Translations under genes and position numbers: made by a program
Assembly: GCF_004765815.2 (NCBI RefSeq)
Contig: NZ_SBIS02000011.1
Coordinates: forward strand, 248,001-312,000
Source: Halorussus salinus
GTDB taxonomy: Archaea; Halobacteriota; Halobacteria; Halobacteriales; Haladaptataceae
DNA length: 64,000 bases
Direction of reading: 5' to 3'
Shown here: positions 3,025-46,235 of the stretch, in pieces
How positions within the stretch are numbered: position 1 is the stretch's first letter
How the letters are laid out: the number at the start of each line of letters is the position of its first letter
Notes under the pieces: model-generated
Told to the model about the DNA's origin: nothing
What the model saw: the letters and a program-made list of their open reading frames with translations, nothing else
Database searches by the model: none

Positions 3025-3159
3025 ATGCTCAGAGGCAAAATCGAGAGGTGGCTAAAGCGGCATCCGTGGGCGATTGGGGCGATATTTTCTGCGGGAACAT
3101 ATCTGACAGACCCTATCGCGCCACTGAGTTGTGGTATTTGTACTACTCCCGGACCTTAA
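3025..3159 (+). CDS. 44-residue hydrophobic peptide facing the CHAT protease gene
   Basis: The frame reads MLRGKIERWLKRHPWAIG and continues through a short hydrophobic helix (AIFSAGTYLTD) to a tail with two cysteines (SCGIC) and a C-terminal Gly-Pro. The layout is a basic amphipathic N-terminus, HPWAIGAIF, then one membrane-sized segment. It resembles the very short haloarchaeal peptides grouped as DUF7503-like, but that is my recollection and needs checking. The AT-rich sequence at about 2985-3003 could hold its promoter. Its stop codon overlaps that of the convergent CHAT gene by 4 nt (3156-3159). Both the peptide gene and the 3' part of the protease gene lie in one AT-rich block, suggesting a functional pair. 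Confidence 0.6.
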   Translation: MLRGKIERWLKRHPWAIGAIFSAGTYLTDPIAPLSCGICTTPGP

Positions 3160-5207
3160 ATATCCTCCCCGGTGATTTCGTCAGTCCAACAGATTTCACC
3201 GTCGATTTGGACGGGGCTTGTCTGATCGTCAAAGTACTCATTAAGAGCCTCAATATTGACCGTTTCTTGGACAAATGAGGAATTAAGAGAAGAGACTGCC
3301 TCCCTTCCGAGTTTTATATTAGTAAGTGAACCTAAAGGAAGACTCAACGAAGGATACGGGTCAAGTTCCAACGAAATCTGTCCTTTCTCGCTGGAATCAG
3401 CTGTAATAAGGCTAGGCGTACCACACTTCGGCTGGACTAAATCAGTACTACCATCGCCGACAACAACATACTGACGGTCAAACGTACTTACATCAGTCAC
3501 CACCGACAAGGCACTCTGCATCGAGAACCCGTGGTTCAGCAAGCGCGCCAACTCCTTGCCCACGTCCGTCGCGGGGTCGTTGCCCACCTTGGTCAGCGTG
3601 ACGACGCCGACCTGACTGCCCTTCTCGACCAGCGTCTCGCCCTGCTCGTAGGACCGACAGCCGTTGAGGATGAAGCCGCGGACGCCGGACGTTTCGAGGT
3701 CCGCTACGTCGAGCATCCCGTCGGCACACTCGATGCCCTCGTCGGTGACGTGGCCGATGTAGTGCAGGAAGTCCGTGCCGGATTCCAGCAGGTCCCGTAG
3801 CTCCTCGGTCGTCAGGTCGTTGTGGAGCGACACGTCGAAGTCGTAGAGGTCCCGCGTGCCGTAGATGTCGCCGACCACGTCCTCCTCGCGCATGCGCTCG
3901 TCGTTGCACACCACGTCCACCGAGATGTGGTGTTTCGGCGTCGCGTCGAGGCGACGCTTCAGCGCCTCGGGCGTCGCCTTGCTCGCGCCGATGGGCATCT
4001 CGTCGCCGACCCAGACGTGTTCGATGGTGTCGGCCGGGTCGGGCTGAATCACGTCGCTCACGGGAGCCTCGCCGTCGTCGGCCGAGCGGTAGAACGCCTC
4101 CAACTCGCTCGGCTCCGGCTCGACCACCGACGGGTCGGGCTGGTCGGGACACCTGACGAACGCGAGTTCGTCCGCGGCGAACGGGAGGACCGCGACGTTC
4201 TCGTGGGTCGGCGACACGTCCATCGTGACCTTCCACTGCGGGAGGTGGGGTTCGACCACCTCGAAGGGAACGTCGAGATACCGGCGGAGTTGTTCGGCCA
4301 GCGGCTCGTCGTACAGCGACTCGAAGTCGAGGTCAACGTCGGGTTCGAGTCGCTTTCGCTCCCGCAGGTCCACCTCGTAGTAGCCCTCGGTCCGCGTCAC
4401 GCAGTCGAGGAAGAACACCTGCTGGAGGACGCGCCGGACTCCCGCTTCGAGTCCGCCGGGCGCGTCGAGCGAGTGGCTGAACTCGTCGGTGAGCAGGCGC
4501 GGGTCGTCGCCCGGCACCACGCTCGCGCCGAGGTAGAACGCCAGCGGCGCGACCGCGTAGATTGCCTCGCGCTCGTCGGGAACCTCGATTTTGACCCCCG
4601 TTTCGGGCCGCTCGATGTCCCCCTCGACGCGGAACTCCTCGCCGGGTTCGAGCAACGGCGGGTGGCCGCGCAACGTGGGGAACGACCGCTCGCAGGTCGT
4701 CGTCTTGAGCGCCGACCCGAGGAGGGACACGGCGTCCATCAGCGCCCCGGTGTCGTCGGGAACCGTAATCGTCCCCGCCGGAGTCTGGTGGAGCGAGCGC
4801 GCGCCGACCTCGACGGTGGTCTCGTCGCCGAACGAGAGTTCGACCGCTTCGGTGCTTCCCGAGATGGCGACCTCGCTCTCGACCGCGAGGTACACCTTCA
4901 TCTGCGTGTTGGCGAGTTCGAGGTTGTACGCGTCGGCCGGGAGGTCGAGTTCGGACCCGCCGCTGGACTGCCCGACCATCTCGCCCGCGTCGTCTCTGAC
5001 GTACACGTCGAGACCCTTCGTGGTCCGGAGCGAGTCCGTCCGGACGGACACCGCGGTATCGACCGGGAAGTAGAACGCGTCCGTGTCCGCCACCTCCGGC
5101 GAGACGGCCGAGGAGGCGTGCAGGTCGAACTGCGTGCGCTCGATGGGGTCCGTGGCGCGGACGCCGTCGGGTTCGACGAGAGCAGTAAACTCGGGATTCA
5201 TTGACAC
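3156..5207 (-). CDS. CHAT-domain (caspase-like) protease
   Basis: A 683-residue protein from GTG 5207, or 681 from ATG 5201; a TATA-like element at 5227-5235 fits either. The first ~400 residues are beta-rich with no recognised domain. The C-terminal part is a CHAT peptidase domain: FLHYIGH supplies the catalytic His (about residue 484 counted from ATG 5201) and ILNGCRSYEQG supplies the catalytic Cys (about residue 515). CHAT proteases, relatives of caspases and separase, act in bacterial gasdermin and type III CRISPR-linked cell death. The role of haloarchaeal members is unknown. The last ~120 residues lie in visibly AT-rich DNA (3156 to about 3520), while the rest is GC-rich, so the tail may be a replaced module. 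Confidence 0.85.
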   Translation of the reverse strand: MSMNPEFTALVEPDGVRATDPIERTQFDLHASSAVSPEVADTDAFYFPVDTAVSVRTDSLRTTKGLDVYVRDDAGEMVGQSSGGSELDLPADAYNLELANTQMKVYLAVESEVAISGSTEAVELSFGDETTVEVGARSLHQTPAGTITVPDDTGALMDAVSLLGSALKTTTCERSFPTLRGHPPLLEPGEEFRVEGDIERPETGVKIEVPDEREAIYAVAPLAFYLGASVVPGDDPRLLTDEFSHSLDAPGGLEAGVRRVLQQVFFLDCVTRTEGYYEVDLRERKRLEPDVDLDFESLYDEPLAEQLRRYLDVPFEVVEPHLPQWKVTMDVSPTHENVAVLPFAADELAFVRCPDQPDPSVVEPEPSELEAFYRSADDGEAPVSDVIQPDPADTIEHVWVGDEMPIGASKATPEALKRRLDATPKHHISVDVVCNDERMREEDVVGDIYGTRDLYDFDVSLHNDLTTEELRDLLESGTDFLHYIGHVTDEGIECADGMLDVADLETSGVRGFILNGCRSYEQGETLVEKGSQVGVVTLTKVGNDPATDVGKELARLLNHGFSMQSALSVVTDVSTFDRQYVVVGDGSTDLVQPKCGTPSLITADSSEKGQISLELDPYPSLSLPLGSLTNIKLGREAVSSLNSSFVQETVNIEALNEYFDDQTSPVQIDGEICWTDEITGEDI

Positions 5208-42124: not shown

Positions 42125-43072
42125 TCAGTCCGAGGCGGCCACGCCGCCTCGCGCCTCGCGTCTGGCCTGCTCGACGGTCTTGCCGTCGCGCAGCACGGCG
42201 TCCACGAACAGTTCGCCCGCCTTGTACGACGACCGGACCATCGGGCCGCTGGCGCAGTAGAGGAAGTCCAACTCGTCTTCGGCGACGCGACGCCACGTCT
42301 CGAACTTCGCGGGGTGGACGTACGTCTCCACGTCGAGGTGAGTACGAGAGGGCTGGAGGTACTGGCCGAGTGTCACCACGTCCACGTCGGCCTCCCGCAA
42401 ATCCGAGAGTGTCTGGTAGACCTCGTGGTCGTACTCGCCGACGCCGAGCATGATGGAGGTCTTGGTGTAGATGTCGGACTCGCGTTCGACCTGTTCGAGG
42501 ACCGAGAGGCTCTGTTCGTACCCCGCCCGCGGGTCGCGGACCGGTTGCTGAAGCCGCTCGACGGTCTCGACGTTGTGCGCGATAACGTCCGGCTCGGCGT
42601 CGATTATCTTCTGGATGAGGCTCTCCTCGCCCCGGAAGTCGGGGATGAGAACCTCCACGAGAATCGAGGAGTCCCGCTTCTTTATCTCCCGAATCGTCTG
42701 CGCGAAGTGGGCCGCGCCCTGCCCCTCCAAGTCGTCGCGGTCCACCGAGGTCAGGACCACGTAGTCGAGGCCGATTTCCGCGACGGCGCTCGCCACGTTC
42801 GCGGGTTCGTCGGGGTCTAACGGCTGGCCGCCGCCGGTGTCAACGTCGCAGAACCCGCAGTTGCGGGTACACTGGTCGCCCATCAGCATGAACGTCGCGG
42901 TGCCGCCCGAGTCGGAGTTTTTCCCACTCCAGCACTCGCCGAGGTTCGGACAGTTGGCCTCCTCGCAGACGGTGTTGAGGTCGTGGTCCCGCAGGGTCTG
43001 CTTGATGCCCGTGAACTCTCGGCCGGACGGCGGTTGCATCTTCAGCCAGTCGGGTTTCCGGCGGCGACTCAT
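42125..43072 (-). CDS. lipA: Lipoyl synthase
   Basis: A 315-residue radical SAM enzyme from ATG 43072 (MSRRRKPDWLKMQPPSGREF). The auxiliary iron-sulfur cluster cysteines are Cys36, Cys41 and Cys47 (CEEANCPNLGEC). The radical-SAM cluster cysteines are Cys68, Cys72 and Cys75 (CTRNCGFC). The conserved C-terminal RSSY serine, the fourth auxiliary ligand, is present. It inserts two sulfurs into octanoyl-E2 to make lipoyl-E2, serving the complex encoded just downstream. Linkage to pdhABC supports that role. Confidence 0.96.
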   Translation of the reverse strand: MSRRRKPDWLKMQPPSGREFTGIKQTLRDHDLNTVCEEANCPNLGECWSGKNSDSGGTATFMLMGDQCTRNCGFCDVDTGGGQPLDPDEPANVASAVAEIGLDYVVLTSVDRDDLEGQGAAHFAQTIREIKKRDSSILVEVLIPDFRGEESLIQKIIDAEPDVIAHNVETVERLQQPVRDPRAGYEQSLSVLEQVERESDIYTKTSIMLGVGEYDHEVYQTLSDLREADVDVVTLGQYLQPSRTHLDVETYVHPAKFETWRRVAEDELDFLYCASGPMVRSSYKAGELFVDAVLRDGKTVEQARREARGGVAASD

Positions 43073-43184
43073 TGGCTCTGTGTTGGGTTGGGGTAGTGAA
43101 AAGGGTAGGGTATTCGCGGGCGAGGGTGGGCGTTCGGTCGGTTTTGACTTCTCTTGCTTGCAGAAGGCGGACGGAGGAATCTCG

Positions 43185-43448
43185 TCAGGCGTCGTCAAGG
43201 AAGCCGATGTTGCGGTCGATTCCGCGCTCACGAAGCAACTCTTTGAGCTCCTCGGGACTGTGACCCGCAATTTCGGCGGCACGATTGAGGCTCACGTCGC
43301 CCGTCTTGTACTGCTCGACGGCGAGTTCGGTCCGGAGTTCCGGACGTTTGTCCAGCAGTGCCCGGAACGCCTCTTCGAGGAACTCCTCTTCCGAGGCGAA
43401 GCGGCCGGTTCTTCGCAGGAGTTCGATATTTTCCTTAACGTTGCTCAT
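43185..43448 (-). CDS. UPF0175-like protein, antitoxin without a partner
   Basis: An 87-residue protein (MSNVKENIELLRRTGRFASE). The N-terminal ~40 residues form an acidic/basic helical region, and the C-terminal half, LAVEQYKTGDVSLNRAAEIAG then EELKELLRERGI, matches the UPF0175 helix-turn-helix. Unlike 36477-36707 there is no toxin gene beside it. It could be a solitary regulator or the remnant of a TA module. The gene upstream is the pentapeptide channel on the opposite strand. Confidence 0.7.
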   Translation of the reverse strand: MSNVKENIELLRRTGRFASEEEFLEEAFRALLDKRPELRTELAVEQYKTGDVSLNRAAEIAGHSPEELKELLRERGIDRNIGFLDDA

Positions 43449-43526
43449 GGACTAATCTCCTTGTTTTGAATTTGGGTTCTCGGACTAATAAACGGTGAGG
43501 CGAGTCTCATTACGCAGAAAGGTGGA

Positions 43527-43534
43527 TTTTTTAC
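43527..43534 (+). promoter_or_regulatory. TATA box of the pentapeptide/channel gene
   Basis: ttttttac is centred about 27 nt before ATG 43557, fixing the start of the protein. Confidence 0.5.
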
Positions 43535-43556
43535 GAGGGTATTTGTGGTGGTTGGT

Positions 43557-44900
43557 ATGAGTGAGCGCGTTCCGGAGGATAGGTGTGGATATGTGAGTGC
43601 TGAAGATTTGCCGGAGGATTTAGGTGGAGTTTGTTGTTGGCGATCTATTTGGAAGAACAATAATAAATGTTTTTGGCATACTGAGAAAGAGTCCAAGTCT
43701 TGTACTGAATTACAAAATGCACAGCTAAACAAGGGTGAGCGGTTGGATGGCGCGATTCTTAAAAAGAGCGCGATACCGCCAATTTCGTTTGCTGACGCTA
43801 TCTTGTGGGATGCAGACTTTAAAAGCAGTACTCTATCTAATGTTAACTTCTCCAACGCAAATATTTGTAATTCCAGCTTTTTGGGAGCAGATTTAAGAGA
43901 AGCAGATTTAAGCAATACGTCGGCCGTCAACGCGGACTTTTGGCACTGTAGTCTTCGAGGAGCAGATTTAATAGGAGCAGATATGTCTAATTCGAGATTA
44001 GCGAATGTAGATTTGAGAGACACAGATACAATTGGATTGACCATTGAAAAAGCCAACCTCAACGAGGCAAATCTTAAAGGACTGATGTTAAGTAACGCCC
44101 TAATGACGAAATCAACATTTGCGGGGGCGAATCTTTCAGATACACAAATGTCTCAGTTATATCTGAAGGGCGCGGATTTCGAGGGAGCAACTCTCAAAAA
44201 CGCAAAAGCCTCGAATACAAACTTCTCGCAGGTGAATTTTGAGGATGCTTCTCTTGTTCAGGCAGATATCCGAGATTCTAATTTTAAAAATACGCGCTTC
44301 TACCAGACTCTCTTTTCAGATACCCGCATCAACAGTAATACCGATTTCGGCGACACAACTGCCTACGAAGACCCCGACATCGACCTCGGCGAGAACTACG
44401 AAGACACCTCTCGATTCGAAGCCGCGGCGTGGGTCTACCGCCGCCTCCAAGACCTCCACGAGGAGAACGCCATGTCCGAACAGGCCCGCGAGTACCACGT
44501 CCGGAAGGAGGAGGCCCACCGCTCGAACTACTGGTCGAAGGGCCAGTACTTCCAGTGGTTCGTCTACACGCTGAATCGCTACCTGACGCGCCACGGCGAG
44601 AGCCTGAAACACGTCGTCACGTGGTCCGTCGGCACCATCCTCACCTGCGCGCTCGCGTACCCGTTCGCGGGCGGGATTTCCACTGGAAACGAGGTGTTCC
44701 GGGTCGGCTCCGGCGCGGCGCTCGGCGGCCTATTCCTCCGAAGTCTCTACTTCAGCACGGTCACGTTCACGACGCTCGGGTACGGCGACTACCACCCGGT
44801 CGGTCCCGCGGCGAAGGCGCTCGCCGGAGCCGAATCGCTCGCGGGCGCGCTCCTCGTGGCGCTGTTCGTGTTCGTTCTCGGCCGCCGCGTCGCGCGCTGA
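43557..44900 (+). CDS. Pentapeptide-repeat sensor fused to a potassium-type ion channel
   Basis: A 447-residue fusion protein. Residues ~20-45 hold a cysteine/histidine cluster (CCWRSIWKNNNKCFWHTE) that could bind a metal. About 60-265 is a right-handed pentapeptide-repeat helix (ADLREADLSN, GADLIGADMSN, ANLNEANLKG). A cytoplasmic helical stretch follows. The C-terminus is a two-helix pore: helix WSVGTILTCALAYPFAGG, the selectivity filter TLGYGDYHP, and helix SLAGALLVALFVFVLG. The first ~780 nt are AT-rich, the rest GC-rich, so the two halves probably have different origins. It may open or close a K+ path in response to what the repeat domain senses. Confidence 0.8.
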   Translation: MSERVPEDRCGYVSAEDLPEDLGGVCCWRSIWKNNNKCFWHTEKESKSCTELQNAQLNKGERLDGAILKKSAIPPISFADAILWDADFKSSTLSNVNFSNANICNSSFLGADLREADLSNTSAVNADFWHCSLRGADLIGADMSNSRLANVDLRDTDTIGLTIEKANLNEANLKGLMLSNALMTKSTFAGANLSDTQMSQLYLKGADFEGATLKNAKASNTNFSQVNFEDASLVQADIRDSNFKNTRFYQTLFSDTRINSNTDFGDTTAYEDPDIDLGENYEDTSRFEAAAWVYRRLQDLHEENAMSEQAREYHVRKEEAHRSNYWSKGQYFQWFVYTLNRYLTRHGESLKHVVTWSVGTILTCALAYPFAGGISTGNEVFRVGSGAALGGLFLRSLYFSTVTFTTLGYGDYHPVGPAAKALAGAESLAGALLVALFVFVLGRRVAR

Positions 44901-44918: not shown

Positions 44919-45308
44919 CTACTCCTCGCCTTCGGGTGCGACGTTCCGCTGGTCCTGCGTCGCGGCCGCGCCTTCCGCGTTCAGGGCGCTCTGGAGTTCG
45001 AACAGTGCCCGCGTGACTTTCCCCTCGTCGTTGAGCCTGTAGCGGCGGGGATTCGTGTCCGGGACCTCCTCGACGACGTTGAATTTCAGGAGGGTATCGA
45101 CGTACGTCCGGACGGACTCGCGGCTGACGCCAGCGTGGTCGCCGAGTTCTTTCTTGTTGAACTCGCGTCCGGGTGGTGAATCGAGGAGCGCGTCGATGAC
45201 CAACGGAAGCGTCTGGTTGTCGGTCAGCTCCAGCCATGCACTCGGGTTTTGGCGACGCAACTGCTTCATATCTGCCGAGTCAGGCGACGAATCGTTCGTG
45301 GGCGACAT
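44919..45308 (-). CDS. Winged-helix transcription regulator
   Basis: A 129-residue protein from ATG 45308 (MSPTNDSSPDSADMKQLRRQ), with a longer start possible at ATG 45338. The winged helix is in the centre: LPLVIDALLDSPPGREFNKK, HAGVSRESVRTYVDTLLKF, then the wing VVEEVPDTNPRRYRLNDEG. The C-terminus (LFELQSALNAEGAAATQDQR) looks like a dimer helix. It is of the haloarchaeal MarR/PadR-like type and probably controls its neighbours. TATA-like tatatg sits at about 45341-45346. Convergent with the channel gene and divergent from the gene at 45431. Confidence 0.75.
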   Translation of the reverse strand: MSPTNDSSPDSADMKQLRRQNPSAWLELTDNQTLPLVIDALLDSPPGREFNKKELGDHAGVSRESVRTYVDTLLKFNVVEEVPDTNPRRYRLNDEGKVTRALFELQSALNAEGAAATQDQRNVAPEGEE

Positions 45309-45430
45309 CGGTCGTTCCTTCGAACGGTATCGAGTCATATAGATTTTGCGTGTGTGCCAAATCTTTTTGGCGTACTTTCGATTCCAGTCTTTTAATATAT
45401 CCCTTGAGTCAAAATAGGTGAGAGACACAC

Positions 45431-45742
45431 ATGGCGTCGCAGGAGGCAAGATGTGCAGTCGTACAGGTGCTGATCGCCGACCACAAGTACGGAACGCCGT
45501 TACCGAAAGAGGAGGTAGTGAGTCGGGCAGCGGTGAAAGACGACGGCGAAGCGAAGACGGCGTTCGAGGAGTTGAAGCAACAACCGTTCGTCCGCTACGG
45601 TCGTCAGCGAGGGATGCTGTTAGACAGCAGTCGATTCGGAGACTTGGCAGACTACCTCTATCATCGGTGTGGGTGGAAACCGTTCGTCATCGAGTCTCGA
45701 CTGAAGCACTACGAGGGATGGTCCCGACACGAGTGGGTGTAG
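45431..45742 (+). CDS. 103-residue hypothetical protein, winged-helix-like
   Basis: From MASQEARCAVVQVLIADHKY. The pattern PLPKEEVVSRAAVKDDGEAK then TAFEELKQQPFVRYGRQRGM suggests a winged helix with a wing of RYGRQRGMLLD, and the end DYLYHRCGWKPFVIESRLKH is unlike known families. It is AT-poor relative to nearby gene 44919. Divergent from the regulator (45308); shared promoter region contains tatatcccttgagtcaaaat. Confidence 0.6.
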   Translation: MASQEARCAVVQVLIADHKYGTPLPKEEVVSRAAVKDDGEAKTAFEELKQQPFVRYGRQRGMLLDSSRFGDLADYLYHRCGWKPFVIESRLKHYEGWSRHEWV

Positions 45743-45893: not shown

Positions 45894-46235
45894 ATGAACA
45901 CCAACGCCTTCGACTGGCTCGCCATCCTCCTCGTCGCCGTCGGTGCGATAACGTGGGGAATCCTCGGCGTCACGGGGTTGACCGGCGAACCGCTCAACGT
46001 GGTCGACCTCCTGCTAGAGCCTATCTTCCGGCCCGGTCCGGCCCAAACCGTCGAGAACCTCATCTACACCCTCGTCGGCGTGGCGGGCGTCTACCTGCTG
46101 TACACCGCGTACAAGATGGGCCGCGCGAGTCGGCGAGCCACCCGCGAGCGCCGCAAGCGCGACGCGACGACTCGGACCGAGACGACGACCGACTACGGCG
46201 AGACCGACACCGACAACACGAATACCGAGTCCTAA
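45894..46235 (+). CDS. DUF378-like membrane protein
   Basis: A 113-residue protein. Helices WLAILLVAVGAITWGILGVT and LIYTLVGVAGVYLLYTAYKM, with a loop PLNVVDLLLEPIFRPGPAQT, follow the DUF378 pattern. The C-terminus is a charged, low-complexity tail (RATRERRKRDATTRTETTTD). Function unknown. Confidence 0.75.
   Translation: MNTNAFDWLAILLVAVGAITWGILGVTGLTGEPLNVVDLLLEPIFRPGPAQTVENLIYTLVGVAGVYLLYTAYKMGRASRRATRERRKRDATTRTETTTDYGETDTDNTNTES

What the first reader, a model, noticed from the sequence alone, without database searches (positions are those of the whole stretch)
43557..44900. Pentapeptide-repeat sensor fused to a K+ channel, with a composition break in mid-gene
The N-terminal ~780 nt are AT-rich and encode a cysteine/histidine cluster and a pentapeptide helix. 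The C-terminal part is GC-rich and encodes a two-helix pore with TLGYGDY. The break near 44340 suggests that a foreign sensor was joined to a native channel. Such a fusion is rare and could link a protein or DNA ligand to potassium flow, as pentapeptide proteins often mimic DNA.
Basis: partly seen in the sequence, partly recalled or inferred. Interest (0 to 1): 0.65.

Follow-up and report, generated by a model that had tools for sequence, protein, structure and literature searches.

The report
Haloarchaeal potassium channel with exchangeable sensor
The gene encodes a predicted potassium channel with a repeat-built sensor in front of it; the joined design is common and old in salt-loving archaea, but the sensor half seems to be replaced by recombination again and again while the channel half stays, as one would expect of a recognition receptor.

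Summary
ORF 43557-44900 (447 aa) has a Cys/His head, a pentapeptide beta-helix, a helical linker and a two-helix pore with TLGYGDY. GC3 jumps from 0.41 to 0.89 at codon 271, at the end of the beta-helix. The fusion is neither rare nor new: I read 126 copies from haloarchaea and Thermococci, most of uniform composition. The sensor half does have its own history. At the same locus in Halorussus ruber the linker is 92% identical in DNA, but the sensor is 35% identical in protein and its synonymous sites are at chance. Nine of 126 genes (seven lineages) have a strong mid-gene break, always AT-rich sensor to GC-rich channel. Pairs with 80-87% identical channels can have sensors only 26-48% identical, whereas a vertically inherited short form of the family shows no such gap. 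The gene lies in an islet absent from 15 of 16 other Halorussus with the locus resolved. Best reading: a ligand-gated K+ channel whose sensor is replaced by recombination through conserved ends. Use as an antiviral receptor is plausible, not shown; HalA of the Hailong defence system is an analogue, not a family.

The parts
43557..44900 (+). whole gene, 447 aa plus stop: Cys/His head, pentapeptide sensor, linker, two-helix K+ channel
43584..43679 (+). Cys/His head (residues 10-41; three Cys and one His, possible metal site)
   Evidence: sequence; 32-row head alignment A1 (rows were picked with a Cys/His pattern, so of its conserved columns mainly R22 is independent of the choice); head profile in 78 of 293 genomes of the order
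43701..44360 (+). pentapeptide beta-helix sensor (about residues 49-268), AT-rich
   Evidence: Pfam; model pLDDT about 70-80 over most of residues 91-220, HetL Z 24.0
43420..44350 (.). AT-rich block, from the upstream intergenic stretch to the end of the sensor
44367..44570 (+). helical linker (about residues 271-338), 92% identical in DNA to H. ruber over 261-320; composition break at its start (44370)
44577..44642 (+). first membrane helix (about residues 341-362), divergent from H. ruber together with the loop up to residue 400
   Evidence: sequence; helix limits by eye, models weak
44772..44792 (+). selectivity-filter motif TLGYGDY (residues 406-412)
   Evidence: sequence; Pfam PF07885
44805..44894 (+). 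second membrane helix (about residues 417-446), protein ends right after it
   Evidence: sequence
44919..45449 (-). islet gene: winged-helix-like protein (only weak Pfam matches), 69% identical to the neighbour in H. ruber (stops inside there)
45431..45742 (+). islet gene: 103-aa protein, 86% identical in H. ruber
43185..43448 (-). UPF0175 protein, present in this islet but without a match in that of H. ruber
42125..43102 (-). lipA, left flank of the islet
45894..46235 (+). DUF378 gene, right flank of the islet

Best explanation
It is a predicted ligand-gated potassium channel. Four subunits form a two-helix K+ pore in the membrane; each carries on its cytoplasmic N-terminus a Cys/His head and a pentapeptide beta-helix that binds something, and the helical linker passes the binding event to the first membrane helix (domains shown by sequence; tetramer, ligand and gating inferred). 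The gene belongs to an accessory, horizontally scattered long-sensor branch of an old archaeal family. In this branch the sensor is replaced by sensors of other family members through recombination in the conserved ends (promoter and head on one side, linker and pore on the other). In this gene the last replacement brought an AT-rich sensor. The exchange history is shown indirectly, by identity, synonymous sites and composition; that the sensor recognises a variable enemy such as a virus is inference, at about 0.3-0.35. Parts: K+ pore 0.85; sensor replacement by recombination 0.7; gating by the sensor 0.55.
For: Domains and filter (KirBac-type match over profile positions 313-420). Composition break at the sensor/linker boundary. 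Same-locus H. ruber gene: DNA identity about 0.37-0.57 per window over codons 1-240, 0.92 over 261-320, 0.48-0.65 over 321-400, 0.85-0.90 over 401-440; start region conserved; fourfold sites 5/22 in the sensor against 18/22 linker and 23/34 filter+TM2, Fisher 8e-5. Other pairs: channel 0.80-0.87 with sensor 0.26-0.48, abrupt switches near the linker, sensor fourfold sites near chance in 6 of 6 long pairs (not independent) while channel sites exceed chance. Control: 14 short-form pairs, sensor 387/724 and channel 660/1250; short pairs with channel identity 0.7-0.9, 0 of 64 with a gap over 0.25, long pairs 9 of 19. Nine of 126 genes with a strong interior break, 9 of 9 AT to GC, in seven tree lineages. 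Empty site in 15 of 16 other Halorussus. Same head and sensor on another C-terminus in the active provirus Harhisp1.
Against: No donor of the sensor was found; the best sensor match is about 40%. Degenerate repeats may be misaligned, which also drives synonymous identity to chance. Long-form pairs share genes, so they are not independent; 117 of 126 genes show no strong interior break. Two of the nine (L172, L188) have uncertain starts. The first membrane helix and turret of the query also differ from H. ruber, so exchange is not confined to the sensor. 13 of 68 long forms have lost a canonical filter, so the branch is not uniformly a K+ channel. The fold models of the channel part are poor.
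Confidence: 0.6

Rival explanations
1. Sensor hypervariability comes from diversifying selection or loose constraint on a repeat solenoid alone, without exchange of segments.
For: Pentapeptide repeats tolerate many residues; sensor identity is low in many long-form pairs.
Against: Sensor fourfold sites are at chance while channel sites in the same gene pair are not; composition differs between halves; short forms with the same repeat fold diverge evenly.
Confidence: 0.2
2. One reading: a foreign sensor was recently fused to a native pore-only channel.
For: Break at the domain boundary.
Against: 126 complete copies including Thermococcus; the same fused order at the same locus in H. ruber; own-genome paralogues L015 and L016 have the same architecture with uniform composition.
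Confidence: 0.04
3. An ordinary ion-homeostasis or osmosensing channel; the long forms are just faster-evolving paralogues with no role in conflict. (A rival on function; compatible with sensor exchange.)
For: The short forms look vertical and housekeeping-like (one clade of 49 rows, 100/97); no PADLOC match for the protein itself; neighbours of 20 long forms show only scattered defence genes; no channel half in 50,697 phage records.
Against: Patchy islet and plasmid location, exchange pattern, lost filters, a viral relative with another effector.
Confidence: 0.45
4. The 3' half was overwritten instead: an AT-rich gene came in and its conserved channel end was converted by a GC-rich relative.
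For: Uniformly AT-rich long forms exist (for example L015 in the same genome); recombination starts most easily in the conserved channel end.
Against: No near-identical channel donor: own paralogues match the query channel at 40-42%; H. ruber shows the same order of compositions. Does not by itself explain sensor divergence between the two same-locus genes.
Confidence: 0.25

Closest known systems
Ion_trans_2 two-helix K+ channels (KirBac, KcsA, MthK type; PF07885)
   Same: two helices, pore loop, TLGYGD filter; profile matches KirBac over the pore
   Different: no C-terminal RCK or Kir domain: the protein ends after helix 2 and the sensor is N-terminal
Pentapeptide repeat proteins (HetL, Qnr, MfpA; PF00805)
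   Same: right-handed beta-helix; HetL Z 24.0, 223 residues, rmsd 2.5
   Different: fused to a membrane channel; far below the Qnr and MfpA cut-offs (57.3 of 240, 49.2 of 360 bits)
HalA, effector of the Hailong anti-phage system (PDB 9nyi)
   Same: pentapeptide-like region on a membrane pore, gated by DNA oligomers according to the reference title and one passage seen in PMC13275509; weak model match E 3.3e-5, TM-scores 0.18/0.23
   Different: 35.9 bits against a cut-off of 250; no nucleotidyltransferase partner seen next to this gene; works-like at most, not a member
Proteins annotated 'pentapeptide repeat-containing protein' or 'potassium channel family protein' in haloarchaeal plasmids
   Same: same family
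   Different: no described function or exchange history in the papers my searches could reach

Membership tests
Ion_trans_2 K+ channel | PF07885 match above the gathering score | tested here: met
   49.2 bits against 22.5
Ion_trans_2 K+ channel | filter T-x-G-Y-G between two membrane helices | tested here: met
   TLGYGDY at 44772-44792; helices by sequence
Ion_trans_2 K+ channel | tetramer that conducts K+ | not testable with these tools
   no assay; monomer models only, poor in the channel part
Pentapeptide repeat protein | PF00805 match and beta-helix fold | tested here: met
   121.1 bits against 20.2; HetL Z 24.0
Qnr/MfpA gyrase-protecting DNA mimics | score above the curated NCBIfam cut-off | tested here: not met
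   57.3 of 240 and 49.2 of 360 bits
Hailong HalA | score above the curated NCBIfam cut-off | tested here: not met
   35.9 of 250 bits, best stretch residues 181-257 only
Hailong HalA | HalB nucleotidyltransferase next to it | tested here: not met
   neighbours are lipA, UPF0175, a winged-helix-like protein, a 103-aa protein without NCBIfam match and DUF378
Hailong HalA | channel gated by DNA oligomers | not testable with these tools
   needs a binding or flux assay
Known anti-phage defence system | match in PADLOC-DB | tested here: not met
   0 families at E 0.1

The most novel reading that the evidence does not exclude
The long-sensor branch is an archaeal family of polymorphic immune receptors: a conserved metal-binding head and a conserved K+ channel effector flank a hypervariable pentapeptide solenoid that is exchanged between alleles by recombination, so that each allele recognises another viral or plasmid product and answers with K+ flux and growth arrest. 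Proviruses carry the same head and sensor on another effector.
Probability: 0.3. Interest if true: 0.88.

Novelty: new variant of a known kind. Interest (0 to 1): 0.55.

Why it matters
If the sensor is a recognition domain that is exchanged on a fixed channel, haloarchaea would have a receptor-channel family comparable in logic to plant NLRs or to exchangeable specificity subunits of restriction systems. It would give direct tests of what pentapeptide solenoids bind in archaea and of whether K+ flux is used as a defence response in cells that hold molar K+. Even without a defence role, it documents recurrent sensor exchange in a fused channel family and a clean control, the evenly evolving short form.

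Tried and rejected
Rejected: a recent fusion of a foreign sensor and a native channel (see rivals). Rejected: a coding constraint on pentapeptide repeats as the cause of low GC3; sensors of many GC-rich homologues have GC3 0.8-0.97. Rejected: DNA mimicry from charge. Dropped before the break count: L147 and L138, whose change points lie near an uncertain start (11 genes had a gain of 12 or more, 9 kept); L172 and L188 were kept although their starts are uncertain. Dropped from the filter count: L073 and L079, cut by the locus end. Two pairs of members have identical last 120 residues, and 124 of 126 rows entered the tree.

Led nowhere: viral-contig scan, none of 4 pattern hits confirmed; channel half in 50,697 phage records, no match; PADLOC for the protein, none. 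Structure models: whole protein mean pLDDT 53.6, channel part 55.3; I draw nothing on the channel from them and did not fold-search the second model. In one search the list is filled by the beta-helix; no K+ channel row appears there, which is not evidence against the fold. PADLOC neighbours: 91 models matched among 145 proteins around 20 long forms, 25 among 145 around 20 short forms (145 of 168 and of 159 ORFs called by my own composition rule, the longest up to 700 aa taken); models overlap and the 40 loci were picked by hand across the tree, so this is a hint, not a test.

Paper searches (all 10) found no paper on a pentapeptide-repeat K+ channel in archaea; the library lacks most subscription journals, and the Hailong paper itself is not held. 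Seen of papers: passages of PMC13275509, PMC7911831, PMC10853773, PMC12419801, PMC11237479; otherwise search listings. What I say of HalA beyond those passages and the titles is recalled.

Full report
What is there. The gene at 43557-44900 (+) encodes 447 residues: a Cys/His head (residues 10-41), pentapeptide repeats (about 49-268), a helical linker (about 271-338) and a two-helix pore with TLGYGDY, ending right after the second helix. GC3 is 0.41 up to codon 271 and 0.89 after it; the gain of 56.9 compares with at most 11.6 in 500 permutations. The AT-rich block begins upstream of the gene at 43420.

The fusion is common. With the whole protein, 127 of 293 genomes of the order match at 1e-10 and 16 of 18 of the genus (these counts include matches to the repeats alone). 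The channel half matches in 86 of 293 genomes at 1e-15 and the head profile in 78 of 293 at 1e-6. I read 126 gene copies that have the channel half plus at least 40 residues in front, three of them from Thermococci. They come from the loci given and from most, not all, of the remaining places. The query's own genome has two more: L015, uniformly AT-rich, and L016, uniformly GC-rich. Plasmid copies are mostly annotated 'pentapeptide repeat-containing protein'.

The locus. In Halorussus the order pdhB-pdhA-lipA-DUF378-aldolase is conserved. lipA was found in 17 of 18 genomes. Of the 16 besides the query genome, 15 have DUF378 next to lipA and none of the islet genes in the fetched stretch; one, G124 (its contig C18 has the length and gene of the H. 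ruber contig in L001), has the islet. There the gene is split between the end of contig C2 and the start of C18; both ends carry a 13-base inverted repeat and the short direct repeat CACCCATAAC, so I infer an insertion element inside the sensor. Gene order on the two contigs matches the window.

Two halves, two histories. Along the alignment with H. ruber, protein identity is 0.15-0.60 per 20-residue window over residues 1-240, 0.85-1.00 over 261-320, 0.25-0.50 over 321-400 and 0.95 over 401-440. Bases around the start codon are conserved. Fourfold sites: sensor 5/22, linker 18/22, first helix and turret 9/18, filter and second helix 23/34; chance is about 0.25-0.27 in the sensor, 0.60 in the linker, 0.39 and 0.38 in the rest. 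H. ruber has the same order of compositions, with its break about 50 codons earlier. Against the reading: the first helix and turret are divergent as well, so exchange or fast change is not limited to the sensor.

Is this general? Among the 126 genes, 11 have a GC3 change point with a gain of 12 or more; two near the start are set aside, leaving 9, all from AT-rich sensor to GC-rich channel, none reversed. All 24 interior change points with a gain of 6 or more also go this way, although a mild 5' effect seen in other genes of the window contributes. On a tree of 124 channel halves the nine fall in seven places. The same tree puts 49 short-sensor rows in one clade (100/97) that largely follows host groups, whereas long-sensor genes are scattered: L181, L194, L176 and L189 come from three families of hosts yet form one tight clade.

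Control by the short form. Among pairs with channel identity 0.7-0.9, 0 of 64 short-form pairs but 9 of 19 long-form pairs have a sensor more than 0.25 below the channel. In 14 short-form pairs fourfold identity is 387/724 in the sensor and 660/1250 in the channel; in six long-form pairs it is near chance in the sensor and above chance in the channel. Profiles of L077/L104 and L194/L176 show a conserved head, a divergent solenoid and a switch near the linker. Pairs share genes and are not independent; misalignment of repeats can mimic saturation.

Other effectors and degenerate pores. Of 20 regions fetched for heads without a strong channel match, several have a pore with a changed filter (such as TTAPP), some have no pore, one carries a phosphoribosyltransferase-like end, and one is the provirus Harhisp1. 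Harhisp1, an active pleolipovirus of Haloarcula hispanica (passages of PMC7911831), carries head and sensor on a different C-terminus with a predicted membrane segment. A relative in G041, next to proteasome-like and FtsZ-like genes as is L023, stops before the first membrane helix. A canonical filter is present in 50 of 51 short and 55 of 68 long forms.

Mechanism. Shown: the domains, the filter, the exchange pattern. Inferred: four subunits, sensor inside the cell, ligand binding passed through the linker to the first helix, K+ flux. Haloarchaea hold molar K+ (general knowledge), so an open pore would change the cell drastically. Replacement of the recognition part on a constant effector is what one expects of a receptor in conflict; pentapeptide repeats are reported in conflict gene sets (one passage of PMC10853773), and HalA is a defence channel blocked by DNA adducts (passage in PMC13275509). 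Neighbourhoods give only a hint. I therefore put the conflict reading at about 0.3.

Comparison. It is a member of the pentapeptide and of the two-helix channel families by Pfam cut-offs. It is not a HalA, Qnr or MfpA by curated cut-offs. I found no paper on such a channel in the searches listed. The novelty lies in the exchange pattern, not in the fusion.

Noticed in passing
window 3159-5207 (-): A 683-aa ORF with GC3 0.91 for 570 codons and 0.41 after that, a break as strong as in the given gene but in the other direction; no Pfam match at 0.01.
   Followed up: partly
L261, L262, L267, L268, L269, L274, L275: Family relatives in which the K+ filter is replaced by motifs such as TTAPP or VTAPP while the pore helix and second membrane helix are kept: possibly a pore of other selectivity.
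   Followed up: no
L131, L133: Proteins of more than 1,300 residues with helical repeats, a Cys/His head, a long pentapeptide-like solenoid and the same channel end.
   Followed up: no
L257: Head and pentapeptide repeats inside a 1443-aa open frame with a phosphoribosyltransferase-like C-terminus and a weak helix-hairpin-helix match.
   Followed up: no
window 43185-43448 (-) and L279 3359-3586: UPF0175 proteins lie next to two long-form genes, here and on Halalkalicoccus jeotgali plasmid 5; may be chance.
   Followed up: no
L135 (G041) and L225: Two genes in a similar setting (proteasome-like, sensor gene, FtsZ-like): one with the pore, one ending just before it.
   Followed up: partly
L226 4992-6123: A family gene on Halalkalicoccus plasmid 1 is annotated as three separate genes, near a transposase and a recombinase, apparently decaying.
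   Followed up: no
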